Assembly: GCA_963812945.1 (NCBI GenBank)
Contig: CAWEXD010000010.1
Coordinates: 124,001 to 188,000, forward strand
Source of the DNA: DASRDR01 sp963812945 [NCBI: uncultured Candidatus Rokubacteria bacterium]
GTDB lineage: Bacteria > Methylomirabilota > Methylomirabilia > Rokubacteriales
Direction of reading: 5' to 3'
DNA: 64,000 nt
Each line of letters begins with the position of its first letter. Within the stretch, counting starts at the first letter, position 1. Both the position numbers and the translations under genes were made by a program. This document shows, one piece after another, positions 13,241-23,532 of this stretch. The notes below the pieces were generated by a model. That model saw only the letters and a list, made by a program, of their open reading frames with translations. It did no database searches and was not told where the DNA came from.

Positions 13241-15421
13241 CTACTTCGTCTTGGCCACCCAGACTCCGTCCCAGTCGCTCGCCGGCGGCGCGGCGAGGAG
13301 CTCTCGGGCTCGGCGGCGGTACAAGAGGATGGGCCCATCGTCGGGCGCCGCGACCGCCAGCGCCTCGAAGAGCTCCGTGGCCTCCGCCCACCGGCGCCCT
13401 CGGTACAGCGCGACCCCCTCTTCGTAACGCCGGACAACGTCTCGCCGCGCAGGCGTGACGTCGCCCGCACGCCCCACGAGCTCGTAGACCTGGAGCGGCT
13501 CGGCGCGGCCCTTCACGGCCACCAGGTCGAGGAAGCGGTACTCGAAGGCGTCGCCCGCCGCCTGCCGCGTGGCCTCGCCGATCACGATGTGGACCCCGTA
13601 CTCCTTGCTCAGCCCCTCGATGCGGGACGCCACGTTGACCGCATCCCCCACCGCCGTGTAGGCCAGGCGATCCCGGGACCCCAGGTTCCCGACGATCGTG
13701 GTCCCGGTATTGACGCCGATCCCCATGTCGAGCTGCCCCCAGCCGTGCGCCGCGAACTCGACCCGGAGGGGGCCGAGCGCCTCGATCATCGCCAGCGCCG
13801 TTGCGCACGCCCGGCGCGCGTGATCCGGCTGGGCCATGGGGGCGTTCCAGAACGCCTCCAGTCCGTCCCCGGCGTAGTGGGCCAGGACCCCGTCGTGCCG
13901 GAACACGATCGCCGTCATCTCGGTCATGTGGTCGTTCAGGAGGCCGACGAGCGTCTCGGGCGGCAGCGCGTGGGCGTGCGTCGTGAAGTTCCGCAGATCG
14001 CTGAAGAGCACGGTCATCTCGCGCAGCTCGCCCCCGAGGCGCAGCCGGCTCGGGTCGGCCAGCACCCAGCGGCTGACCGAGGGCGAGAGGTACCGGCCCA
14101 TCGCCTCGCGAACCCGGCGCTGCTCGGCCTGCTCGAAGACGACCCGGTCCACGAGAGCGACGGCGTAGGCGACGAGGAGCGCGCTCAGCGGGAGCACCAG
14201 GTCGAGGATGACGCCGCCCTCGAGCAGCATGGTCGCCACGATCAGGTAGAGGCCGAGGACGGCGAGGACGAGCAGCCCCATGCCGAGCGGGCGTCCGGCG
14301 GCCGCGAAGAGGCCCCCCAGCAACGCCAGGGCGACGATCAGCGCGACGACGGCCGGCCGGGGGGCGGGCCGGAGGAAGCGCTGGTGCAGGATCGTCTCGA
14401 TCGCGCTGCCGAGAATCTCGACCCCCCACATCCGCCGATCGCCCGTCGTCGGGGTGGGATGCTCGTCGATCCCCGGCGTCGTGGACCCGACCAGGACGAT
14501 CTTGTCCCGCACCGATTCTGGGTCGAAGGTGCCCTCGAGGACGTCGACGAGCGGGATGATGCGGAACGGCCCGCCGCCGCCGGGCTCGGACGGGGGGCCG
14601 AGGAAGTTGATGAGCATCGAATCGCGCTCGGCGACGGGGATCGTCCGGCCTGCGGCGTGGAGGAGCCCGCCCGACGGCGCCGCATCGATCACGCTCTGGC
14701 GCCGGGTGAACCGAGCCACGACGACCACGGCGAAGCTCGGAACCTGCTCCTCGCCGACGCGGAGGAGAAGCGGCAGGCCGCGCACCACGCCGTCCCGGGC
14801 CGCGGTCACGTTCACGATTCCCTCGTCGAGGCGCGCGTCCCGGACCGCCCGGGTCGGACGGGCAAACCGCTCGAACTCCTGCGCGACGCCGGGGCGCGGG
14901 TCGAAGGCCCCCGCCCCCTGGGCAACCACCGGCGTGATCACGCTGGCGGCGCGCCGGAGCGCCGCCGACAGCTCCTCGTCATCGGCGCGCGGAGCGTCGA
15001 AGAGCACGGCCAGGCCGATCAGCCTCGGGGAGGCGGCCTGGAGCGCGTCGAGGGCGCGCGCGTAGAGCGACCGCGGCCACGCCGCCACCGGGCCGTAGCG
15101 GGGCCTCAGGCGGCGCGCGCTCCGCTCGTCCACGCCCACGATCACGGTCGAGGTCGCCGCCCGAACCGGGCGGGCCAACAGGAGAAGATCGACGGCGCGC
15201 GCGCGCGTGGCCGCCACCGTGTCGAGAAGGAAGGCCGCGGCCAGCAGGACGGCGACCGCCAGCGCCAGGAGCCCGGTCCGGATCAGGCGGCGCCGCGCGG
15301 GGCGGCCCGGGGCCGCGCCGGGCGCGTGGGGGTCCGCCGCCGATGTGGCTCGCCCCGTGGAACCCGATGAGGACAGCAGGGATGTCACCAGTGCCGGCCC
15401 TCGCGTGAACGCCCCCATCAC
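13241..15421 (-). CDS. CHASE2-sensor class III adenylate/guanylate cyclase
   Basis: 726 residues (GTG 15421 or ATG 15418). One N-terminal helix (~47-66) precedes an extracytoplasmic CHASE2 domain (~80-330; VIVGVDERSARRL, DKIVLVGSTTPGIDEH). Three helices (~355-430) lead to a cytoplasmic class III cyclase domain (~450-640). Metal-binding aspartates sit in VLFSDLRNFT and HYAGDGLEAFWN, and the substrate/transition-state segment YTAVGDAVNVASRIE is canonical, so cyclic-nucleotide synthesis is likely. The C-terminal ~70 residues resemble a TPR-like helical tail. It likely signals extracellular conditions and converges with the FecR-domain gene. Confidence 0.88.
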   Translation of the reverse strand: MMGAFTRGPALVTSLLSSSGSTGRATSAADPHAPGAAPGRPARRRLIRTGLLALAVAVLLAAAFLLDTVAATRARAVDLLLLARPVRAATSTVIVGVDERSARRLRPRYGPVAAWPRSLYARALDALQAASPRLIGLAVLFDAPRADDEELSAALRRAASVITPVVAQGAGAFDPRPGVAQEFERFARPTRAVRDARLDEGIVNVTAARDGVVRGLPLLLRVGEEQVPSFAVVVVARFTRRQSVIDAAPSGGLLHAAGRTIPVAERDSMLINFLGPPSEPGGGGPFRIIPLVDVLEGTFDPESVRDKIVLVGSTTPGIDEHPTPTTGDRRMWGVEILGSAIETILHQRFLRPAPRPAVVALIVALALLGGLFAAAGRPLGMGLLVLAVLGLYLIVATMLLEGGVILDLVLPLSALLVAYAVALVDRVVFEQAEQRRVREAMGRYLSPSVSRWVLADPSRLRLGGELREMTVLFSDLRNFTTHAHALPPETLVGLLNDHMTEMTAIVFRHDGVLAHYAGDGLEAFWNAPMAQPDHARRACATALAMIEALGPLRVEFAAHGWGQLDMGIGVNTGTTIVGNLGSRDRLAYTAVGDAVNVASRIEGLSKEYGVHIVIGEATRQAAGDAFEYRFLDLVAVKGRAEPLQVYELVGRAGDVTPARRDVVRRYEEGVALYRGRRWAEATELFEALAVAAPDDGPILLYRRRARELLAAPPASDWDGVWVAKTK

Positions 15422-15510
15422 TCACTATACGCGGACGGCACCTGGGGGGTTGCGCACCCGACCCGGTGCACGGGGCGGCCGCGCGGATCGGTCGTGACGG
15501 AGTGGGAAAG

Positions 15511-15921
15511 CTAGCGGGCCGACGGGAACGACGCCGGGGGGGCCGGCGCGTGATGCGGCGCCCGCCGCCAGCGGCCGTAGGCGACGAACGCGGCGAGGAT
15601 TCCCACCGCGAACGGGATCAGCGTCGCCGCGGGGTCGCCCATCAAGAGCCCGAGCCCCGTCGCCCCGGCCATGATGATCACCAGCCCGAGAGCGGCCAGC
15701 GGCGTCAGGCCCGGCCGGACACGCAGGAGCCCCGGCAGAACCAGGCCGAGCCCTCCGAGGAGCTCGACCACCCCGATGAATCGCAGAAACGCGCCCGCGC
15801 CCGGGATCGCCACCGGCATCTGCTTGGTCATCTCCTCGACCGGCATGACCAGCTTCATGCCCCCGGCGAACACGAAGAGGGCCGCCAGCACGCCCTGGAC
15901 GATCCACAGCGCGAGGTTCAT
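15511..15921 (-). CDS. DoxX-family membrane protein
   Basis: 136 residues with four predicted helices. It begins ALWIVQGVLAALFVFAGGMKL and has the FLRFIGVVELLGGLGLVLPG motif of the DoxX/DoxD-like family in the second helix pair. DoxX proteins are small quinone-linked or unassigned membrane proteins. A GGGAGA RBS lies before the ATG. It is the last gene of a four-gene minus-strand run (propeller, MoaD, SRPBCC, DoxX) with gaps of -4, 11 and 25 nt, behind an ECF42-type promoter at 18052-18077. A second DoxX gene is at 55353-55790. Confidence 0.82.
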   Translation of the reverse strand: MNLALWIVQGVLAALFVFAGGMKLVMPVEEMTKQMPVAIPGAGAFLRFIGVVELLGGLGLVLPGLLRVRPGLTPLAALGLVIIMAGATGLGLLMGDPAATLIPFAVGILAAFVAYGRWRRAPHHAPAPPASFPSAR

Positions 15922-15946
15922 GGTCGATCTCCCGCGCGCCGCTCCC

Positions 15947-16489
15947 TCATGGTCGGGCCGCCGCGGTCTCCGCCACCGCTTTCATCTGCGCCAAGCCCTG
16001 CTCGAAGTCCCCGCCGATCATCCGGTCCATGTTCATGAAGAGGCACATCACCTTCATCATGAAGTTGTGCCGGCCGGTCAGGCTCCACGTCACGGCGGTC
16101 CGACTGCCGGCGGGCTCGAACGCGAACTCCGCGGTGCTGGTGGCCTTGAAGGGCTTCTCGAACTCCAGCCGGATTCGGATCAGGTCGTTCGGCTGGCTTT
16201 CGGTGATCGTCGTGCGCCCTTCGCCGACCTCCTTGTTGCCGGACCACGCATAGACGGCGCCGACGCCCGTCGGCGCTCCCTCGTACGTCTTCCGCATCGC
16301 GGGATCGCGCTTTTCGTACGGGGACCACGCGGCCCACTTCCGGAAGTCGTTCACCTGCGTGAACACCAGGGGCGGGGGCGCGGCGATCGTGATCGTCCGC
16401 GACACGCGGAACTCGGACGGCCGCCGGGCCACGACGATGCCCAAGCCGGCCACGACCGCCCCGATGGCGGCAAGAATCCCCGTCAGCAT
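15947..16489 (-). CDS. SRPBCC family protein (polyketide-cyclase-like) with N-terminal membrane helix
   Basis: 180 residues. An N-terminal hydrophobic helix (2-21) is followed by an SRPBCC fold: FRVSRTITIAAPPPLVFTQV, then WAAWSPYEKRDPAMRKTYEG, which is the W-x-x-WSP-hallmark of the polyketide cyclase 2/START-like group found beside DGPF and sigma-factor genes. Function is unassigned. It sits 11 nt after the MoaD-like gene and 25 nt before doxX, in the operon under the ECF42-type promoter. Confidence 0.82.
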   Translation of the reverse strand: MLTGILAAIGAVVAGLGIVVARRPSEFRVSRTITIAAPPPLVFTQVNDFRKWAAWSPYEKRDPAMRKTYEGAPTGVGAVYAWSGNKEVGEGRTTITESQPNDLIRIRLEFEKPFKATSTAEFAFEPAGSRTAVTWSLTGRHNFMMKVMCLFMNMDRMIGGDFEQGLAQMKAVAETAAARP

Positions 16490-16500
16490 TCCCGATTCTC

Positions 16501-16797
16501 CTAGCCGCCCGCGATGGCGCCCACGACCAGGAAGGGCTCGGCCCCTCGCGCGACCGCGTCGGGCAGCGGCGTATCGGGCGACTCGTGCGACAGATCCCCC
16601 TCGCAGGCGAAAAATCGCACGAACGCCCGGCGCTCGTGGGTGACATGGTCGCGGACCGTCCCGCGCAGCATCGGATACTTGGCCTCCAGCGCGTCGAGGA
16701 CCCCGCGCAGCGTCACCGGACCCTCGACGTGAAGCGTCACCTCCCCTTCGACGCGCGCGAGCGTCCGCAGATGCGCGGGAAGCACGACTCGGATCAT
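16501..16797 (-). CDS. MoaD/ThiS-type ubiquitin-like protein
   Basis: 98 residues starting at the ATG that overlaps the propeller gene stop (ATGA). It has a beta-grasp pattern ([31 protein letters not shown]) and ends in the exposed Gly-Gly tail (VVGAIAGG) that such proteins need for adenylation and thiocarboxylation. Canonical MoaD donates sulfur for molybdopterin. Here no MoaE, E1 enzyme or cofactor gene is near; the partner is instead the BNR-propeller gene. A role as sulfur carrier or protein modifier is possible but unproven. Confidence 0.82.
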
Positions 16798-17981
16798 CGC
16801 AGGGTCTGGACCTCCACCGACACGACGCTCGGCAGGTCCCGGACGATCGGCGTCCAGCGGTCCCCGGCGTCGGCCGAGGCGTACACCTGCCCGCCGGTGG
16901 TGCCGAAGTACACGCCGCACGGGTCGAACGAATCCACGGCCATCGCGTCGCGCAGCACGTTGACGTAGCAGTTGCGCTGCGGCAGGCCGTTCGTGAGGGC
17001 CTCCCACTCGCCGCCGCCCGTCCGGCTGCGGTACACGCGCAGCTTGCCGTCCGGCGGATAGTGCAGCGAGTCGCTCGTGATCGGGACGACGTAGACGGTC
17101 TCCGGCTCGTGCGCGTGCACCTCGATGGGAAAGCCGAAGTCGGTCGGCAGGTTCCCGCTGATCTCTCGCCACGACTCCCCGGCGTCGTCGCTGCGCATGA
17201 CGTCCCAGTGCTTCTGCATGAACAGGACGTCCGGGCGCGACGGGTTCATCGCGATGCGGTGCACGCAGTGGCCGACCTCGGCCGTCGGGTTCGGGATGTA
17301 CAGCGAATGAAGGCCCCGATTGATCGGCCGCCAGGTCTTTCCCGCGTCGTCGGTGCGGAACGTGCCCGCCGCCGAGATGGCGACGAAGATCCGCCCGGGA
17401 TGGCGCGGATCGAGGAGGATCGTGTGCAGACACATCCCCCCGGCGCCCGGCTGCCAGGAGGGCCCCGAGCCGTGGCCGCGCAGTCCGGCGAGCTCCCGCC
17501 ACGTCGTGCCCCCGTCGGTCGAGCGGAACAGGGCGGCGTCCTCGACCCCGGCGTAGACGGTGTCCGGATCGGTGAGCGACGGCTCCAGATGCCAGACGCG
17601 CTTGAACTCCCAGGGATGCGGCGTGCCGTCGTACCACTGGTGCGTGGTGAGTGGCTTGCCGGTCCCGGGCGAGGTGTCGTAGAGGAAGTTGTTGCTCTCG
17701 CCCTTGGGCATGCCCTCCGGGGTGGTGGTCGGCTCGCCAGGGGGCGTTCCGGGTTGGAACCAGGTCTTGCCGCCGTCGTCCGAGCGCTGAATGATCTGCC
17801 CGAACCAGCCGCTGGACTGGGACGCATACAGCCGATTCGGATCCGCGGGCGATCCCTTGAGGTGGTAGATCTCCCAGCCGGCGAAGTGGGGCCCGCTGAC
17901 GTCCCACACCTCGCGCTTGGCGTCCGACGTCAGGACGAACGCCCCCTTGCGCGTTCCCACCAGAACCCGTACCTCACTCAT
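16794..17981 (-). CDS. BNR/Asp-box beta-propeller protein (sialidase-like fold)
   Basis: 395 residues built of repeated Asp-boxes: [32 protein letters not shown] and SADAGDRW, one per propeller blade, with blade starts such as [14 protein letters not shown]. Sialidase catalytic Arg/Tyr residues cannot be recognised, so a binding or scaffolding role is as likely as hydrolysis. There is no signal peptide, which suggests a cytoplasmic protein. It is translationally coupled to the MoaD-like gene, a pairing I recall from other genomes. An ECF42-type promoter (TGTCGA-N16-CGAC) ends 70 nt upstream, making this the head of the propeller-MoaD-SRPBCC-DoxX operon. Confidence 0.82.
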
Positions 17982-18051
17982 CCTTGGTCCTCCCGACCTT
18001 TCGCGATCGTTTCACTCGGCCGGCGTTCCGCCCGCCTTCACCCACTGTATA

Positions 18052-18077
18052 GTCGAACGAGCGGCCCGTGATCGACA
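18052..18077 (-). promoter_or_regulatory. ECF42-type promoter P1 (propeller operon)
   Basis: Minus strand: TGTCGA (18077-18072), 16-nt spacer, CGACTA beginning at 18055. It lies 70 nt before the GTG/ATG region of the propeller gene. The elements match the TGTCGA / CGA(T/C) promoter described for ECF42 sigma factors and three other copies in this window. Confidence 0.7.
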
Positions 18078-18204
18078 AGCGGCCGGCCCGCCCGGATCGG
18101 GTGGCCCGCGCGCCCGTTCGGGGCGCGGCGCGACAGAATGGCGCTTGCGCCTCCTCGCTCGTAGGCCGGCCGCGGCGGCCCGCCGCGGCTTCGGTCTGGC
18201 CCGC

Positions 18205-18231
18205 TGTCGATTCCGGGCGTGCCCGAGCGAC
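18205..18231 (+). promoter_or_regulatory. ECF42-type promoter P2 (DGPF protein 1 operon)
   Basis: TGTCGA (18205-18210), 17-nt spacer, CGAC (18228-18231), 40 nt before the ATG at 18272. Same elements as P1, P3 and P4. Confidence 0.72.
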
Positions 18232-18271
18232 AAGCTGGTGGGCCCGGCCTGGCGCCGACGAGGAGGGAACG

Positions 18272-18628
18272 ATGAAGTACCTGTGCCTGGTCTATTTCGA
18301 CGAGAAGAACCTGGACGCCCTGTCCACGAGCGAGTGGACCGCGCTCACCGGCGAGTGCCTCGCCTACGGCGAGGGGATTCGACAGAACGGCCACTACCTC
18401 GCCGCCGAGGCCCTCCAGCCGGTTCGCACGGCCACGACCCTCCGCGTCCGGGACGGCAAGCTGTCGACGACCGACGGCCCCTTCGCCGAGACGAAGGAGC
18501 AGCTGGGCGGGTTCTACCTCATCGACGCCCGGGATCTGAACGAGGCCATCCAGGTGGCCTCGGGGATCCCGCCGGCGCGCCTGGGGAGCATCGAGGTCCG
18601 GCCGATCCGAGAGCTCACACAGCGGTAG
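18272..18628 (+). CDS. YCII-related DGPF-motif protein 1
   Basis: 118 residues from the ATG at 18272, with GAGGAGG 6 nt upstream. It has the MKYLCLVYFDE start and the defining STTDGPFAETKEQLGGFYLI segment (about 67-86) of the DGPF/YCII family, small dimeric alpha+beta proteins. Family members neighbour ECF42 sigma factors across many phyla; their biochemical role is unknown. It sits behind promoter P2, followed 15 nt later by a DUF1428 gene. It is about 70% identical by eye to DGPF protein 2 at 20208, a likely local duplication. Confidence 0.92.
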   Translation: MKYLCLVYFDEKNLDALSTSEWTALTGECLAYGEGIRQNGHYLAAEALQPVRTATTLRVRDGKLSTTDGPFAETKEQLGGFYLIDARDLNEAIQVASGIPPARLGSIEVRPIRELTQR

Positions 18629-18643
18629 CCCGAGGAGGAACCG

Positions 18644-19003
18644 ATGCTCTACGTCGATGGTTTCCTGGTGCCGGTACCGAGGAAGAACCTGGAAGCGTAT
18701 CTCCGGATGTCCCGGAAGGCGGGCCGGATCTGGCGGGAGCACGGCGCCCTCGAGTACCGGGAGTCCGCGGGCGACGACCTCAGGGTCAAGTGGGGGGCCC
18801 GCTTCCCGCGAGTGGCCAAGGCCAAGCCGGGCGAGACGGTGTTCTTCTCGTGGATCGTCTACCGGTCCCGCGCGCACCGTGATCGGGTCAATGCCCGGGT
18901 CATGAAGGACCCCCGGCTGGCCAGCATGATGGATCCGAAGTCGATGCCCTTCGACATGAAGCGCATGTCCTACGGCGGGTTCAAGGTCCTGGTCGACGTC
19001 TAG
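18644..19003 (+). CDS. DUF1428 (YbaA-like) family protein
   Basis: 119 residues: MLYVDGFLVPVPRKNLEAY at the start, WREHGALEYRES, and KDPRLASMMDPKSMPFDMKRM near 87-107 are typical of DUF1428, a small dimeric alpha/beta-barrel (ABM-like) family without known reaction. GAGGAG precedes the ATG. It shares a transcript with DGPF protein 1 (15-nt gap) and so probably belongs to the ECF42 regulon. ABM-like and YCII folds are related ferredoxin-like barrels. Confidence 0.88.
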   Translation: MLYVDGFLVPVPRKNLEAYLRMSRKAGRIWREHGALEYRESAGDDLRVKWGARFPRVAKAKPGETVFFSWIVYRSRAHRDRVNARVMKDPRLASMMDPKSMPFDMKRMSYGGFKVLVDV

Positions 19004-19040
19004 GCTAAATGCAACTGAGCCCAGAGGGGGTTGGCTAAGG

Positions 19041-19538
19041 ATGCAACCACAGGATGTCACCCGAGTGCTTAGCGATCCGCTGGCACAAGAGCTAATGCAA
19101 TCCAGTATTCCGGCGCGGTTGGCATACCTGGGACCCGACGGATTTCCGCGCGCGATCCCGATTGGTTTCCACTGGAACGGTGTTCAGTTTGTGCTTTGTA
19201 CGGTTCCGCACGCGCCCAAAGTGTCGGCACTGAAAGCAAACCCGAAGGTGGCATTTACCGTTGATACGAACGCTTTCCCGCCGCATGTCTTGCTCGTGCG
19301 AGGTACCGTCGCCATCGATATCGTGGATGGCGTACCGCCCGAATACCTCGCTGCATCTAGAAAGGTTGTCGGATCCGACCAATGGGATGCTTTTGAGGCG
19401 CAGGTGCGCGCGATGTACAAGCGGATGGCTCGTATTGAGATCACGCCGCTTTGGGCCAAGTTGTTGGACTTTCAGACGCGATTTCCAACTCCAATCGAGA
19501 AGTTGATCCGCGGGGCGAGCCAATTGAATCCCGGCTAG
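19041..19538 (+). CDS. Pyridoxamine-5'-phosphate-oxidase-like flavin/F420-type protein, atypical base composition
   Basis: 165 residues with a split-barrel pattern: PARLAYLGPDGFPRAIPIGF and HAPKVSALKANPKVAFTVDT match PPOX-class FMN- or F420-binding proteins, which reduce or bind small molecules. The gene is visibly AT-richer than the rest: three hand-counted 60-nt lines (19081, 19201, 19381) give 55-60% GC against roughly 70% around it. Codons such as GCA, TTG, AAG and GAT are also commoner. The low-GC stretch begins right after the DUF1428 stop. This points to acquisition from another genome, inserted inside the ECF42 cluster. No ECF42 promoter precedes it. Confidence 0.82.
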   Translation: MQPQDVTRVLSDPLAQELMQSSIPARLAYLGPDGFPRAIPIGFHWNGVQFVLCTVPHAPKVSALKANPKVAFTVDTNAFPPHVLLVRGTVAIDIVDGVPPEYLAASRKVVGSDQWDAFEAQVRAMYKRMARIEITPLWAKLLDFQTRFPTPIEKLIRGASQLNPG

Positions 19539-19597
19539 GAACCCCGAACGAGGGGGCGGCGCCCACCCGGGCGGCCGGCGCCCCCATCGTGGCGCGG

Positions 19598-19993
19598 TCA
19601 GGCGGCCTTCTCGTCGGTCTCCCAGATCGCGAAGACGTTCCCCTCGGTGTCCGTCAGGTAGGCGAACCAGCCCATGCCCTTCACCGGCGTCTTCGGCATG
19701 TACTCCTTCGCCCCCAGGCGCTTGGCCTTCCGGACGTATTCGTCCACGCTCTCGACGCCGACGTAGTTGACGGGTGGATGCTCGGGGTGCTGTCGGCGCA
19801 TCAGCCCGCCGTTCACGCCGGGCCGGGCGGGGTGGCCCTTCGCGTCCCTCGGGACGGTGGAGATCAGCCAGTACTCGGGGCCCCCTTCGGACTCGAACTT
19901 CTGGATGTCCCACCCGAACAGCTCGCGGTAGAACTGCGTCGCGCGCTCGGGGTTGTCCGCCGGGATCTCGAAGTGCACGATCGTGTGATCCAT
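19598..19993 (-). CDS. VOC (glyoxalase/bleomycin-resistance) family protein
   Basis: 131 residues from the ATG at 19993, after GAGGAGGGGATC. It begins DHTIVHFEIPADNPERATQFY and ends in YLTDTEGNVFAIWE, the paired beta-alpha-beta pattern of VOC proteins. His and Glu positions compatible with one metal site are present (H in VHFE, E in AIWE). Substrate is unknown. The gene points away from DGPF protein 2 and has its own minus-strand TGTCGA-N17-CGAC element (20077-20103), making it a probable ECF42 regulon member. VOC genes are among the frequent neighbours of DGPF genes. Confidence 0.87.
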   Translation of the reverse strand: MDHTIVHFEIPADNPERATQFYRELFGWDIQKFESEGGPEYWLISTVPRDAKGHPARPGVNGGLMRRQHPEHPPVNYVGVESVDEYVRKAKRLGAKEYMPKTPVKGMGWFAYLTDTEGNVFAIWETDEKAA

Positions 19994-20076
19994 GATCCCC
20001 TCCTCTGGGCAGCCATTCGCCGTCCTGCCATGGCCCGCCATGGCCGTCCGGGCCCGGGTGGCTCCGTCACTCCATG

Positions 20077-20103
20077 GTCGAGCGGGGGCCCGCGGATTCG
20101 ACA
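20077..20103 (-). promoter_or_regulatory. ECF42-type promoter P3 (VOC gene)
   Basis: Minus strand: TGTCGA (20103-20098), 17-nt spacer, CGAC (20080-20077), 83 nt before the ATG at 19993. It lies back-to-back with P4, 35 bp apart. Confidence 0.65.
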
Positions 20104-20138
20104 CACCCCGCCAGGTCCCCCTTCCCCCGCGGCCCCGC

Positions 20139-20164
20139 TGTCGATCTCGGCTCCACGCAACGAC
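20139..20164 (+). promoter_or_regulatory. ECF42-type promoter P4 (DGPF protein 2 and sigma gene)
   Basis: TGTCGA (20139-20144), 16-nt spacer, CGACTA from 20161, 43 nt before the ATG at 20208. It implies that the sigma factor drives its own operon. Confidence 0.72.
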
Positions 20165-20207
20165 TATTGGGCGGCGATCGCCATTCCCCCGCGACGAGGA
20201 GGGAGCC

Positions 20208-20585
20208 ATGAAGTACATGTGCCTGGTCTACTATGACGAGAAGCAGCTGGAGGCCCTGTCGACGAGCGAGTACGACGCTCTCGTGGACGAGGTCCTCGCC
20301 TACCGCGACGTGCTCCGGAAGAGCGGCCACTACATCACCTCGGACGGCCTCGAGCCCGTCGAGACGGCCACGACGATCCGGATCCGGAACGGCCGGGTGT
20401 CCACCACCGACGGACCCTTCGCCGAGACGAAGGAGCAGCTCGGGGGGTTCATGCTCATCGAGGCCCGCGATCTGAACGACGCCATCCGCGTGGCCGCCCG
20501 GCTCCCGCCGATCCGGCTGGGCTGCGTCGAGGTGCGGCCCCTCCGGGAGCATGCCGTCCGCGCCGGGATGACCCGGCGCCCGTGA
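20208..20585 (+). CDS. YCII-related DGPF-motif protein 2
   Basis: 125 residues from the ATG at 20208 (GAGGAGGGAGCC upstream). MKYMCLVYYDEKQ and STTDGPFAETKEQLGGF mark it as a DGPF protein, close to protein 1. Its TGA overlaps the GTG of the ECF42 sigma gene (GTGA), so the two are translationally coupled, the standard arrangement for this sigma group. Promoter P4 lies 43 nt upstream. Biochemical role unknown. Confidence 0.93.
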   Translation: MKYMCLVYYDEKQLEALSTSEYDALVDEVLAYRDVLRKSGHYITSDGLEPVETATTIRIRNGRVSTTDGPFAETKEQLGGFMLIEARDLNDAIRVAARLPPIRLGCVEVRPLREHAVRAGMTRRP

Positions 20586-21871
20586 GCCACGACGCGGCCG
20601 GACGCGTGCACGAGCAGGTGGAGGCGGTCTACCGGACCGACTCGCGCCGCGTCCTGGCTACCCTGATCCGTCTGCTCGGTGACTTCGATCTCGCCGAGGA
20701 CGCTCTCCACGAGGCCTTCGCCGCCGCGGTGGAGCAATGGCCGCGGGATGGCACGCCGGCCAACCCCCGCGCCTGGCTCGTGTCGGCGGGCCGCTTCAAG
20801 GCCATCGACGCCTTGCGCCGGCGCGCCCGGTTCGACGCGTCGCTGACCGAGCTCGCCGAGCGGCTCGACGCCGACACGCCTGACCCCGGCGTCACCGGGG
20901 GCGACGACGCGGAGCTGGAGGACGACCGGCTGCGGCTGATCTTCACCTGCTGCCATCCGGCCCTGGCGCCGGACGCCCAGGTCGCCCTGACCCTCCGCGA
21001 GGTCTGCGGCCTCACGACCGAGGAGATCGCGCGGGCGTTCCTGGTCGCGGCGCCCACGGTGGCGCAGCGCATCGTGCGGGCAAAGGCGAAGATCCGCGAC
21101 GCGCGCATTCCCTATCAGGTGCCGTCCCGGACCGACCTGCCGGACCGGCTGGACAGCGTTCTCCACGTCATCTACCTCGTGTTCAACGAGGGGTACTTCG
21201 CGTCATCCGGCGCGTCGCTGACGCGCCACGACCTCTCCGGCGAGGCGATCCGCCTGGGCCGGCTCTTGACCGAGTGGCTCCCGGAGCCGGAAGCGGTGGG
21301 GCTCCTCGCCCTGATGCTGCTGCACGAGTCGCGGCGGCCCGCGCGCACCTCGCCGGAGGGGGACGTGGTCCTGCTGGAGGCCCAGGACCGCTCGCGCTGG
21401 AACCGGGATCAGATCGCGGAAGGATCCGCCCTGGTGGAGCGCGCGATGTCGTCGCGCCGGATCGGCCCGTACACGCTCCAGGCCGCGATCGCGGCGGTGC
21501 ACGCGCGGGCGCCCAGCGCGGCCGCCACGGACTGGGCCGAGATCGTCGGCTTCTACGACGTGCTCGTGCGCGCGGATCCGTCCCCCGTCGTCGAGCTCAA
21601 CCGCGCCGCGGCGGTGGCGATGCGCGACGGCCCCGGGGCGGGGATCGCGCTCATCGACGCCATCCTGGCGCGGGGCGACCTGGAGGACTACCAGCTGGCG
21701 CACTCGGCCCGGGCGGACCTGTGCCGGCGGCTCGGCCGGAACGCGGAGGCCCGCGCCTCCTACCAGCGGGCACTGAGCCTCACGCGCCAGGAGCCCGAGC
21801 GGCGGCTCCTCGAGCGACGGCTGCGCGAGCTGGGGAGCTCAGACATCGGGGGGGGCCCCGGCTCTGGCTAG
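20582..21871 (+). CDS. ECF42-group RNA polymerase sigma factor with C-terminal TPR-like extension
   Basis: 429 residues, twice the length of an ordinary ECF sigma. Region sigma2 (about 10-85: LLGDFDLAEDALHEAFAAAV, PRAWLVSAGRFKAID) and sigma4 (about 125-175: DRLRLIFTCCHPAL, LTTEEIARAFLVAAPTVAQR) are followed by ~230 helical residues (DUF6596 and TPR-like: YLVFNEGYFASSG, EIVGFYDVLVR, NRAAAVAM). That long extension and the coupled DGPF gene define group ECF42. No anti-sigma gene is present, as is usual for the group, and the extension is thought to regulate activity. Four matching promoters lie within 4 kb. Confidence 0.94.
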   Translation: MSHDAAGRVHEQVEAVYRTDSRRVLATLIRLLGDFDLAEDALHEAFAAAVEQWPRDGTPANPRAWLVSAGRFKAIDALRRRARFDASLTELAERLDADTPDPGVTGGDDAELEDDRLRLIFTCCHPALAPDAQVALTLREVCGLTTEEIARAFLVAAPTVAQRIVRAKAKIRDARIPYQVPSRTDLPDRLDSVLHVIYLVFNEGYFASSGASLTRHDLSGEAIRLGRLLTEWLPEPEAVGLLALMLLHESRRPARTSPEGDVVLLEAQDRSRWNRDQIAEGSALVERAMSSRRIGPYTLQAAIAAVHARAPSAAATDWAEIVGFYDVLVRADPSPVVELNRAAAVAMRDGPGAGIALIDAILARGDLEDYQLAHSARADLCRRLGRNAEARASYQRALSLTRQEPERRLLERRLRELGSSDIGGGPGSG

Positions 21872-21916
21872 ACATCCCGAGGCTGGCCTGTGCTGGCCTG
21901 GGGCCAGGAGGACGCG

Positions 21917-22258
21917 ATGAAATACCTCTGCTTGATCTGCGCCGAGACCGTGATGGAGCAGATGTCCGCGGCCGTCGCGAAACAGCATTACGAGGACTAC
22001 ACACGCTTCACCGCGGCCATTCGAAAGAGCCGCCACCTCGTCGCGGTCAACCGCCTGAAGCCGCCCCACGCCGCGACCACCATCCGCGTCCGGCATGGCA
22101 AGATCTCGACCACCGACGGGCCGTTCGTCGAGACCAAGGAGCAGCTGGGCGGCTACTACGTCATCGAGGCCAGGAATCGGCGCGAGGCGATCCGGGTGGC
22201 GCGCATCGGAGGCGGTCGTCAGGCCCGGCGGGCAGGACGTTCTCGCCGGCGCTCCTGA
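21917..22258 (+). CDS. YCII-related DGPF-motif protein 3, atypical C-terminus
   Basis: 113 residues from the ATG at 21917 (CAGGAGGACGCG upstream). It has MKYLCLICAETV and STTDGPFVETKEQLGGYYVI. After EAIRVA the usual ending (a hydrophobic strand such as VEVRPL) is replaced by an Arg/Gly-rich tail, GGGRQARRAGRSRRRS, so the 3' end may have been disrupted by a frameshift or replaced. It is more diverged than proteins 1 and 2 and lies 45 nt after the sigma gene without its own TGTCGA element, so it probably belongs to the P4 transcript. Confidence 0.78.
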   Translation: MKYLCLICAETVMEQMSAAVAKQHYEDYTRFTAAIRKSRHLVAVNRLKPPHAATTIRVRHGKISTTDGPFVETKEQLGGYYVIEARNRREAIRVARIGGGRQARRAGRSRRRS

Positions 22259-22399
22259 AGCGGGCCGGTCTCGATTCCGGCGTCGCGCCCATGCGGCGCC
22301 GGAATCGGCAGTGGCACGAGCGCCGGCCGTGAGGCACTTCCCGAGCGGCGTGGCCCCGCGCTACCCTTGCCTCCGCCAACGTGACGGCTGGAGGAAACC

Positions 22400-22534
22400 A
22401 TGCGCGCGGGGCGGCTCGGCGGGATCTCGAGAATCGGCATCGGGCGCGACGGGGCGGCCGCGGGGAGCGATCCCCACGGGCTTCGGCTGACCTGCCGTCA
22501 GGCTCCCCGGGAAGGCGCGGGCCAGGGAGCGTGA
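22400..22534 (+). CDS. Small ORF (44 aa) coupled to the cysteine-synthase homologue
   Basis: An ATG preceded by GGAGGAAACC opens a 44-codon frame, MRAGRLGGISRIGIGRDG onward, that ends in TGA overlapping the GTG start of the next gene (GTGA). The good RBS and the overlap suggest real translation, perhaps as a leader that couples expression of the downstream gene, whose own start has a weaker RBS. There is no recognisable domain, so it could be chance in GC-rich DNA. The 140 nt before it, back to 22259, hold nothing I can assign. Confidence 0.35.
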   Translation: MRAGRLGGISRIGIGRDGAAAGSDPHGLRLTCRQAPREGAGQGA

Positions 22535-23532
22535 GCGACCGCGTCGACGCCCGCCTCCTGGACCAGGTGGCGCCCTCGATCGTCGAGGTCATCGGCCGCA
22601 CGCCGGTCATCGAGCTCGCGCGACTGACCCGCGGGCGGCGGGGGCGGATCGTCGCGAAGCTCGACTACCTGAACCCGGGCTTCTCGAAGAAGGATCGGAT
22701 CGCCCGCGAGATCGTCGCCGAGGCGACCGCGTCGGGTGAGCTCCGGCCGGGCCAGAGCGTCGTCGAGCTGACCAGCGGCAACACCGGGACCGGGCTGGCC
22801 ATCGTCTGCGCCGTCCGTGGCCATCCGTTCGTGGCCGTGATGTCCGAGGGCAACAGCCGGGAGCGCGCCCGCATGATGCGGGCGCTCGGCGCCGAGGTGG
22901 TCCTGGTGCCCCAGGCGGCGGGCTCGCGGCCGGGGCAGGTGACCGGCGAGGATCTCGCGCTGGTCGACGTGCGGGCCCGGGCCCTCACCCGGGAGCGGGA
23001 CGCGTTCCGGGCCGACCAGTTCGTCCGCCGGGCGGGCCGGCTGGCCCACGAGCGCCACACGGGGCCCGAGCTGTGGGCCCAGACCGCGGGGCAGATCGAC
23101 GCCTTCTGCGACTTCGTCGGGACGGGCGGCACCTACGCGGGGGTCGCCGCCGCGCTGAAGGCCCGGCGGCCCTCGGTCCGCTGCTACGTGGTCGAGCCGG
23201 AGGGCGCGGCCACGCTCGCCCGTCACCCCGTCACCGATCCGCACCACCGCATCCAGGGCGGCGGCTATGCGATGCCGGAGCTCGAGCTGCTCCGCGACGT
23301 CCCCGTCGACGGCTATCTGCGCGTCGGCGACCTTGGCGCGATCGCCGTCGCCCGGCGGCTTGCGCGCGAGGAGGGAGTCTTCGCCGGCTTCTCGTCGGGG
23401 GCGGTCGTCGCCGCGGCGCTCGCGCTGCTCGACGGGCAGCATGCCGGCGGCACGGTCGCGGTCGTGCTGGCCGACTCCGGTCTGAAGTATCTGAGCACGG
23501 ATCTCTGGCCGGCCGACGACAACGAGCCATGA
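22531..23532 (+). CDS. PLP-dependent cysteine synthase family protein
   Basis: 333 residues from a GTG. It is a fold-type II PLP enzyme: VEVIGRTPVIELARL at the start and the lysine Schiff-base motif NPGFSKKDR near residue 45-53. ELTSGNTGTGLAIVCAVRG is the substrate loop, VGTGGTYAGVAAALK the phosphate-binding glycine loop, and GFSSGAVVAAAL the C-terminal serine motif. These are the hallmarks of O-acetylserine sulfhydrylase/cystathionine-beta-synthase-type enzymes. Whether the nucleophile is sulfide or another thiol or amine cannot be read. It overlaps the small ORF before it and the nucleotidyltransferase after it (ATGA). Confidence 0.9.
   Translation: MSDRVDARLLDQVAPSIVEVIGRTPVIELARLTRGRRGRIVAKLDYLNPGFSKKDRIAREIVAEATASGELRPGQSVVELTSGNTGTGLAIVCAVRGHPFVAVMSEGNSRERARMMRALGAEVVLVPQAAGSRPGQVTGEDLALVDVRARALTRERDAFRADQFVRRAGRLAHERHTGPELWAQTAGQIDAFCDFVGTGGTYAGVAAALKARRPSVRCYVVEPEGAATLARHPVTDPHHRIQGGGYAMPELELLRDVPVDGYLRVGDLGAIAVARRLAREEGVFAGFSSGAVVAAALALLDGQHAGGTVAVVLADSGLKYLSTDLWPADDNEP

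What the first reader, a model, noticed from the sequence alone, without database searches (positions are those of the whole stretch)
18052..20164. Four ECF42-type promoters define a local regulon driven by the sigma factor at 20582
TGTCGA-N16/17-CGAC occurs four times within 2.1 kb, always upstream of a gene start and on the correct strand: P1 (-) for the propeller-MoaD-SRPBCC-DoxX operon, P2 (+) for DGPF 1 + DUF1428, P3 (-) for VOC, P4 (+) for DGPF 2 + the sigma gene. P3 and P4 are 35 bp apart, back-to-back. The pattern matches my recollection of published ECF42 promoters (TGTCGA / CGA(T/C)), and ECF42-DGPF coupling is established. New here is that the regulon reaches a BNR-propeller/MoaD operon, VOC, DoxX and DUF1428 genes.
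Basis: partly seen in the sequence, partly recalled or inferred. Interest (0 to 1): 0.78.

Follow-up and report, generated by a model that had tools for sequence, protein, structure and literature searches.

The report
Four-promoter regulon of ECF42 sigma factor
Four matching promoter signals around a stress-type sigma factor gene are real and recur in distant bacteria, and they put an apparently unstudied pair, a propeller protein and a ubiquitin-like protein, under that sigma factor's likely control.

Summary
TGTCGA-N16/17-CGAC occurs four times in the 64-kb window, only at the reported places, each pointing at a gene start 40-83 bp away. A matrix trained only on other species' promoters ranks these four first (25.5-28.5 bits; best non-overlapping site 10.9). 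The gene at 20582 is an ECF42-type sigma factor.

Comparative evidence supports all four. The motif precedes 57 of 100 YCII (DGPF) genes beside ECF42 homologues, controls 0-4. It also precedes VOC relatives and propeller homologues whose flanks agree near chance.

Corrections: the bare motif is not specific genome-wide, and a stricter form only about twofold over its spacer control in the window's likely phylum; proximity to ECF42 genes is the better evidence. VOC-type targets are not new (PMC6180224).

Most interesting is the propeller with a MoaD/SAMP1/CysO-like protein ending in Gly-Gly: the propeller occurs in 18 of 24 Nitrospirota genomes with an ECF42 gene, 1 of 124 without. No transcription was measured. 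Known kind of regulon, new content.

The parts
18052..18077 (-). P1, ECF42-type promoter (TGTCGA-N16-CGAC, then TAT), 70 bp before the propeller start codon
   Evidence: (25.5 bits); same motif directly before propeller homologues
18205..18231 (+). P2, ECF42-type promoter (N17; CGAC then AA), 40 bp before DGPF1
   Evidence: (26.2 bits); class support
20077..20103 (-). P3, ECF42-type promoter (N17; CGAC then CA), 83 bp before the VOC gene
   Evidence: (27.0 bits); VOC relatives with the motif
20139..20164 (+). P4, ECF42-type promoter (N16; CGAC then TAT), 43 bp before DGPF2-sigma
   Evidence: (28.5 bits); class support
16794..17981 (-). BNR/Asp-box beta-propeller protein, 395 aa, first gene behind P1
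   Evidence: Pfam BNR and Sortilin-Vps10; full-length profile match to solved 3b7f, E 9.4e-128; model
16501..16797 (-). 98-aa ubiquitin-like (MoaD/SAMP1/CysO fold) protein ending in Gly-Gly, overlapping the propeller gene by 4 bp
15947..16489 (-). SRPBCC (Polyketide_cyc2) protein
15511..15921 (-). DoxX_2 family protein, last gene behind P1
18272..18628 (+). YCII/DGPF protein 1
   Evidence: Pfam YCII 4.5e-24
18644..19003 (+). DUF1428 protein
   Evidence: Pfam 2.1e-37
19041..19538 (+). PPOX-class protein, possibly read through from P2; composition unlike its neighbours
   Evidence: Pfam PNPOx_N; GC3 0.63 against 0.86-0.95
19598..19993 (-). VOC (glyoxalase) protein behind P3
20208..20585 (+). YCII/DGPF protein 2, overlapping the sigma gene
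   Evidence: Pfam YCII 7.5e-25
20582..21871 (+). ECF42-type sigma factor: sigma2, sigma4, DUF6596, TPR extension
   Evidence: 80 homologous loci at 63-85% identity
21917..22258 (+). YCII/DGPF protein 3, 45 bp after the sigma gene, unusual C-terminus; possibly in the P4 transcript
   Evidence: Pfam YCII 1.6e-11

Best explanation
The locus is an autoregulated ECF42 regulon. The ECF42 sigma factor (20582-21871) with core RNA polymerase would start transcription at four promoters, -35 TGTCGA and -10 CGAC (often followed by TA) with 16-17 bp between. P4 drives DGPF2-sigma (a positive loop), perhaps with DGPF3. P1 drives propeller, ubiquitin-like protein, SRPBCC and DoxX. P2 drives DGPF1-DUF1428, perhaps with the PPOX gene. 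P3 drives VOC. Shown here: gene identities, sites, orientation, and recurrence of sites and gene set beside ECF42 genes. Inferred: that this sigma reads the sites, and operon extents. Inferred from literature on relatives (PMC8999054): that the TPR extension controls sigma activity by protein contact, perhaps with a YCII protein. Signal and physiological role are unknown; the small ligand-binding folds suggest a response to a toxic small molecule or oxidant (weak inference).
For: Sigma domains. P1-P4 rank 1-4 in 64 kb under a matrix from other species. Motif before 57 of 100 YCII genes in 63 ECF42 loci; reverse orientation 2/100, 151-300 bp upstream 2/99, other spacers 4/100 and 1/100, permuted hexamers 1/100, 0/100, 0/100. 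Without the 43 Pseudomonas-titled loci it is 31 of 73, reversed 2. Strict sites, Nitrospirota set: 68 in 24 ECF42+ genomes (23 with at least one) against 20 in 124 others (15 with one); pattern read backwards 9 and 26; 42 of 68 within 20 kb of the ECF42 gene. Methylomirabilota set: 38 in 39 against 8 in 56; 13 of 38 within 20 kb of an ECF42 gene, while 0 of 17 spacer-shifted control sites share a contig with one. Propeller: 33 of 39 ECF42+ genomes against 6 of 56; 18 of 24 against 1 of 124. A same-strand strict site lies within 2.5 kb upstream of the propeller in 16 of 19, opposite strand 0 of 19. Genes behind strict sites include YCII, propeller, SRPBCC/AHSA1, VOC, DoxX, DUF899, DinB/MDMPI-like and VOC, YCII. 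No sigma-70-like promoter in 15400-22600.
Against: No transcript, start site or binding was measured. The bare motif is mostly background: 1888 sites against 1758 for the spacer-shifted control in 39 ECF42+ genomes, 783 against 989 in 56 without. The strict form is only about twofold over its spacer-shifted control in the Methylomirabilota set (38 against 17 in ECF42+, 8 against 11 in the rest; Fisher p 0.054), and that control too is commoner in ECF42+ genomes, 14 of 39 against 10 of 56, so the 21 of 39 against 7 of 56 is partly composition. No spacer-shifted control was run for Nitrospirota (cap reached). 18 of 39 ECF42+ Methylomirabilota genomes have no strict site. One strict site in a genome without a DUF6596 hit (L177, G089) precedes a YCII gene. 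The motif is not directly before the propeller in any of 11 ECF42-linked loci of the first set, where other genes stand between. Genomes of one phylum are related, so Fisher values overstate independence. P2 and P3 lack the downstream TA.
Confidence: 0.85

Rival explanations
1. The promoters are ECF42-type, but mainly read by another ECF42 paralogue or another ECF sigma factor elsewhere in the genome.
For: 22 of 39 ECF42+ relatives carry two or three DUF6596 genes; the window's own genome is not held.
Against: Two of the closest relatives by sigma DNA, G110 and G062, have a single detected DUF6596 gene with sites beside it, though assemblies may be incomplete; P4 precedes this sigma gene itself.
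Confidence: 0.1
2. The sites are operators of a dimeric regulator, since TGTCGA...TCGACA is nearly an inverted repeat.
For: P1 also scores 15.2 and P2 10.8 bits on the opposite strand; TGTCGA and TCGAC are partly complementary.
Against: Orientation towards the gene: 57/100 against 2/100 reversed. The conserved surroundings are asymmetric: T-rich after -35, and CGAC or CGAT followed by TA in 43 of 57 sites.
Confidence: 0.04
3. Chance matches in a GC-rich genome.
For: The bare motif occurs about 9-11 times per Mb in such genomes, and the spacer-shifted control nearly as often.
Against: That rate gives about 0.02 in 2.1 kb; four were found, all oriented to genes, at scores that none of 12 resamples reached, with recurrence before the same gene families elsewhere.
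Confidence: 0.01

Closest known systems
ECF42 sigma factors of Streptomyces venezuelae and Pseudomonas putida ECF-10 (passages in review PMC8999054; the primary papers are not held)
   Same: C-terminal TPR extension and a conserved YCII-protein gene beside the sigma gene.
   Different: Here three YCII genes and four promoter units including propeller, ubiquitin-like, DoxX and DUF1428 genes; none of these appears in the passages seen.
Sinorhizobium meliloti RpoE10 (ECF42), PMC6180224 (passages)
   Same: YCII-sigma gene pair, no identifiable anti-sigma gene; targets with glyoxalase-like domains and a hydrophobic-ligand-binding domain; promoters that I read as TGTCGG-N17-CGTC, the same layout.
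   Different: TGTCGA/CGAC here. Six genes rose there on RpoE10 overexpression, none described in the passages as propeller, MoaD-like or DoxX; its YCII gene did not respond.
SAMP1 / CysO / MoaD ubiquitin-like sulfur carriers and modifiers
   Same: Predicted beta-grasp fold (SAMP1 Z 12.2, rmsd 1.9 over 86; T. thermophilus MoaD-related 12.1, 2.0 over 85; A. orientalis CysO 11.3, 2.0 over 87) and C-terminal Gly-Gly.
   Different: 17-25% identity to those, below the Pfam ThiS cut-off; found here through its pairing with a BNR propeller; no partner enzyme looked for.
3b7f, 'Glycosyl hydrolase, BNR repeat' (solved structure)
   Same: Propeller profile matches over 4-380 of 383 positions, E 9.4e-128.
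   Different: No tested function comes with that entry in the call; pairing with a ubiquitin-like protein and ECF42 not found in the searches made.

Membership tests
ECF42 sigma factor group | sigma2 and sigma4 domains, no sigma3 | tested here: met
   Pfam Sigma70_r2 1.2e-10, Sigma70_r4_2 5e-11, no sigma3 family listed
ECF42 sigma factor group | C-terminal extension of about 200 residues rich in TPR | tested here: met
   DUF6596 at 189-289 and TPR_12 at 373-418 of 429 aa; definition from PMC8999054
ECF42 sigma factor group | YCII/DGPF gene adjacent | tested here: met
   DGPF2 overlaps the sigma gene; DGPF1 and DGPF3 nearby
ECF42 sigma factor group | No anti-sigma gene beside it | tested here: met
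   None of the ten scanned proteins at 15.5-21.9 kb matches an anti-sigma family at E 0.01; the two genes after the sigma gene are YCII and PALP
   Four sites and recurring sites at homologous loci; S. meliloti promoters similar, not identical
ECF42 sigma factor group | Extension required for activity; sigma activates its targets | not testable with these tools
   needs expression experiments
MoaD/ThiS/SAMP ubiquitin-like sulfur carriers or modifiers | beta-grasp fold | tested here: met
   model pLDDT 82.6; top structural matches SAMP1, CysO, MoaD-related
MoaD/ThiS/SAMP ubiquitin-like sulfur carriers or modifiers | C-terminal Gly-Gly | tested here: met
   37 of 40 unique sequences (window included) end in AGG or SGG, window AGG; exceptions GGG, GGA and one run-on
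MoaD/ThiS/SAMP ubiquitin-like sulfur carriers or modifiers | Pfam ThiS sequence cut-off | tested here: not met
   16.3 bits against cut-off 22.5; so called MoaD-like by fold only
MoaD/ThiS/SAMP ubiquitin-like sulfur carriers or modifiers | activation by a MoeB/E1-like enzyme | not tested
   no partner search was made

The most novel reading that the evidence does not exclude
ECF42 sigma factors in at least Methylomirabilota, Nitrospirota and Chloroflexota-related bacteria switch on a hitherto undescribed stress module: a BNR propeller and a Gly-Gly-ending ubiquitin-like partner that work together, either as a sulfur-transfer pair or as a protein-tagging pair in which the propeller is the substrate receptor or target.
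Probability: 0.25. Interest if true: 0.78.

Novelty: new variant of a known kind. Interest (0 to 1): 0.52.

Why it matters
ECF42 is a widespread sigma group whose signal is unknown and whose targets are described in few organisms. A recurring promoter and gene set let the regulon be proposed from genomes of mostly uncultured bacteria, and tie an apparently unstudied propeller/ubiquitin-like pair to a stress-type regulator, which makes its function testable.

Tried and rejected
The first comparison was therefore rejected as a measure of regulon size. What remains is 1875 against 1647 in 38 ECF42+ genomes, G027 dropped because repeats give it 111 control hits (with G027: 1888 against 1758), and a rank correlation of excess with ECF42 number of 0.53.

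In relative G062 the bare motif has 44 matches (the 30 loci fetched there were not annotated); four match the strict form. A large genome-wide regulon was considered and not supported: strict sites number 0-5 per genome.

Strict sites in genomes without a DUF6596 hit: all 8 in Methylomirabilota and 8 of the 20 in Nitrospirota were looked at; one (L177) precedes a YCII gene, the other 15 no relative of a window gene.

In one search genes whose alignment began after query residue 3 were dropped, leaving only 2 VOC genes counted (0 of 2 with motif); the four VOC genes with the motif (L011, L019, L021, L026) were dropped that way. In one search one gene (second L207 row) carries a YCII label through a name clash in my script and is not counted. 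One search was given 36 of the 88 strict sites; those left out lie on other contigs or genomes, or farther off.

The propeller-MoaD pair in a genome without a detected ECF42 gene (L217) showed, by eye, no informative neighbours. A PLP-dependent (cysteine-synthase-like) gene 5.6 kb from the CysO-like gene was considered as a CysO-CysM pair; its strongest DNA matches lie in genomes without ECF42 or on other contigs, so no link is claimed. The profile of the ubiquitin-like protein found no meaningful solved relative by sequence.

Papers not held: Liu 2018, Wu 2019, Tettmann 2014, Casas-Pastor 2021, so statements on earlier regulons rest on passages of PMC8999054 and PMC6180224; passages of PMC8103513, PMC9205884 and PMC7730460 added nothing on targets. 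Searches behind 'not found in print': 'ECF42, DGPF' (0), 'ECF42' (11 listed), 'DGPF domain, sigma' (1), 'MoaD, BNR, propeller' (0), 'sialidase, MoaD, operon, sigma factor' (0), 'YCII, DoxX, sigma factor, regulon' (10 of 26 listed).
Full report
WHAT IS THERE. The pattern TGTCGA-N16/17-CGAC occurs exactly four times in the 64-kb window, all within 18052-20164 (expectation 0.82, 1 of 100 shuffles reached four). Each site points at a gene start: P1 to the propeller gene (70 bp), P2 to DGPF1 (40 bp), P3 to the VOC gene (83 bp), P4 to DGPF2, which overlaps the sigma gene (43 bp). Pfam confirms DoxX_2, SRPBCC, BNR propeller, YCII (DGPF) twice, DUF1428, VOC and a sigma factor with sigma2, sigma4, DUF6596 and TPR. 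The window (72% GC) most likely comes from the Methylomirabilota: its propeller is 75-86% identical to full-length homologues there, and its sigma gene is 81-82% identical in DNA to G110, G092 and G062. This placing rests on these genes alone; the window's own genome is not held.

IS IT MORE THAN CHANCE. Eighty loci with relatives of the sigma protein were fetched (best 80 of 131; 43 titled Pseudomonas). Within 150 bp upstream of their YCII genes the motif (CGAC or CGAT) stands before 57 of 100. Controls: reversed orientation 2/100; 151-300 bp upstream 2/99; spacers 12-13 4/100 and 20-21 1/100; permuted hexamers 1/100, 0/100 and 0/100. Split: Pseudomonas 26 of 27, others 31 of 73 with 2 reversed. 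The aligned sites show TGTCGA followed by T-rich bases, and TA after the -10 in 43 of 57. A matrix from 54 unique sites of other species ranks P4, P3, P2, P1 as the four best places in the window (28.5, 27.0, 26.2, 25.5 bits). Two of the next scores, 15.2 and 10.8, overlap P1 and P2 on the other strand; the best independent site scores 10.9; the top score in 12 first-order resamples was 19.4.

GENOME-WIDE TEST. The own genome being unavailable, 95 genomes of the phylum of relative G005 were used. Bare-motif counts rise with DUF6596 (ECF42) gene number, but a control with the spacer lengthened by three bases is nearly as frequent (1888 against 1758 in 39 ECF42+ genomes; 783 against 989 in 56 others). 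The strict form TGTCGAW-N15/16-CGACTA gives 38 sites in 39 ECF42+ genomes (21 with at least one) against 8 in 56 (7 with at least one). Its spacer-shifted control gives 17 (14 genomes) and 11 (10 genomes), so the gain is about twofold and of borderline significance by count (p 0.054), but 13 of 38 motif sites lie within 20 kb of an ECF42 gene and none of the 17 control sites shares a contig with one (p 0.005). In 148 Nitrospirota genomes the strict form is clearer: 68 sites in 24 ECF42+ genomes (23 with at least one) against 20 in 124 (15); read backwards 9 and 26; 42 of 68 within 20 kb of the ECF42 gene. No spacer-shifted control was run there. P1 and P4 satisfy the strict form; P2 and P3 lack the downstream TA.

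WHICH GENES. Thirty fetched loci hold 31 of the 46 strict sites of the Methylomirabilota set. Nine precede relatives of window genes by BLAST (YCII 5, propeller 2, SRPBCC 1, DoxX 1). Pfam on seven further translations adds AHSA1, VOC (2), PhnB-like (3-dmu-9_3-mt), DUF899, DinB/MDMPI-like and MFS; the remainder were not scanned. Of 32 strict sites in 30 fetched Nitrospirota loci (of 88), 8 precede VOC relatives (7 genes) and 6 YCII genes. This supports P3, as do four loci of the first set in which the motif precedes VOC, then YCII, propeller and MoaD-like genes (L011, L019, L021, L026).

P1 AND THE PROPELLER PAIR. Among 30 propeller loci of the phylum the motif stands directly before the propeller in 7 (L091, L093, L094, L096, L100, L102, L103; gaps 33-96 bp). 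In Nitrospirota a same-strand strict site lies within 2.5 kb upstream in 16 of 19 propeller genes, directly before it (92 and 96 bp) in 2, and on the opposite strand in 0. Across the window, seven Methylomirabilota and two Nitrospirota upstream regions, ungapped identity is 0.26 in the 60 bp before the site, 0.48 in the spacer and 0.31 after it (0.45 in a gapped alignment), so the sites are not merely copies of one long sequence (the core is identical because sites were chosen by it). The propeller co-occurs with ECF42: 33 of 39 against 6 of 56 (73% identity or more, partial genes included) and 18 of 24 against 1 of 124. Relatedness among genomes inflates these figures. In the first set, 11 of 80 ECF42 loci carry propeller and MoaD-like genes, in Thermomicrobiales, Chloroflexia, Methylomirabilota, Nitrospira and relatives, ANGP1 and a proteobacterial bin by record title, with other genes between motif and propeller (0 of 11 direct).

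THE UBIQUITIN-LIKE PROTEIN. The 98-aa partner lies 2-11 bp from the propeller's aligned end in 42 of 46 loci (some loci overlap in origin), 191-221 bp in four, and 37 of 40 unique sequences end in AGG or SGG. Its model (pLDDT 82.6) matches SAMP1, CysO and MoaD-related structures, at about 20% identity; it misses the Pfam ThiS cut-off. The propeller belongs with solved 3b7f.

MECHANISM. The best reading is an autoregulated ECF42 regulon: sigma made from P4, then P1-P4 active when the TPR extension permits. Steps shown: anatomy, recurrence of sites, orientation, gene-set linkage. Steps inferred: binding and initiation by this sigma, positive feedback, and control through the TPR domain with a YCII partner (proposed in PMC8999054, passages seen). 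In S. meliloti the YCII gene before rpoE10 did not respond to RpoE10 overexpression (PMC6180224, passages), so feedback is not universal. What the regulon answers to is unknown.

NOVELTY. ECF42-YCII coupling and glyoxalase-like and ligand-binding targets are in print (PMC8999054, PMC6180224). No paper found in the searches made links ECF42 to the propeller/MoaD-like pair, DoxX or DUF1428; the main ECF42 papers are not held, so this is weak. DoxX occurs in papers on other ECF sigma factors (listing only). The finding is a known kind of regulon with new, recurring content.

Noticed in passing
window 19041-19538 (+): PPOX/F420-type oxidoreductase gene with GC 0.56 and GC3 0.63 amid genes with GC3 0.86-0.95, between DUF1428 and VOC; looks recently acquired.
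   Followed up: partly
window 21917-22258 (+): Third YCII/DGPF gene after the sigma gene; its C-terminal end does not fit the YCII profile (match ends at residue 95 of 112), possible frameshift or decay.
   Followed up: partly
window 22381-23532 (+): PLP-dependent enzyme gene (Pfam PALP 7.4e-62, cysteine-synthase-like) 5.6 kb from the CysO-like gene; no conserved adjacency seen.
   Followed up: partly
genome G027, many contigs: Dispersed near-palindromic repeat that accounts for most of 111 matches of the N19/20 control pattern.
   Followed up: no
L116 1618-1804, L123 8166-8264: Divergent ECF42-type site pairs in relatives, like P3/P4, 131 and 41 bp apart.
   Followed up: no
window 13241-15421 (-): CHASE2 plus adenylate/guanylate cyclase protein just beyond the DoxX gene.
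   Followed up: no
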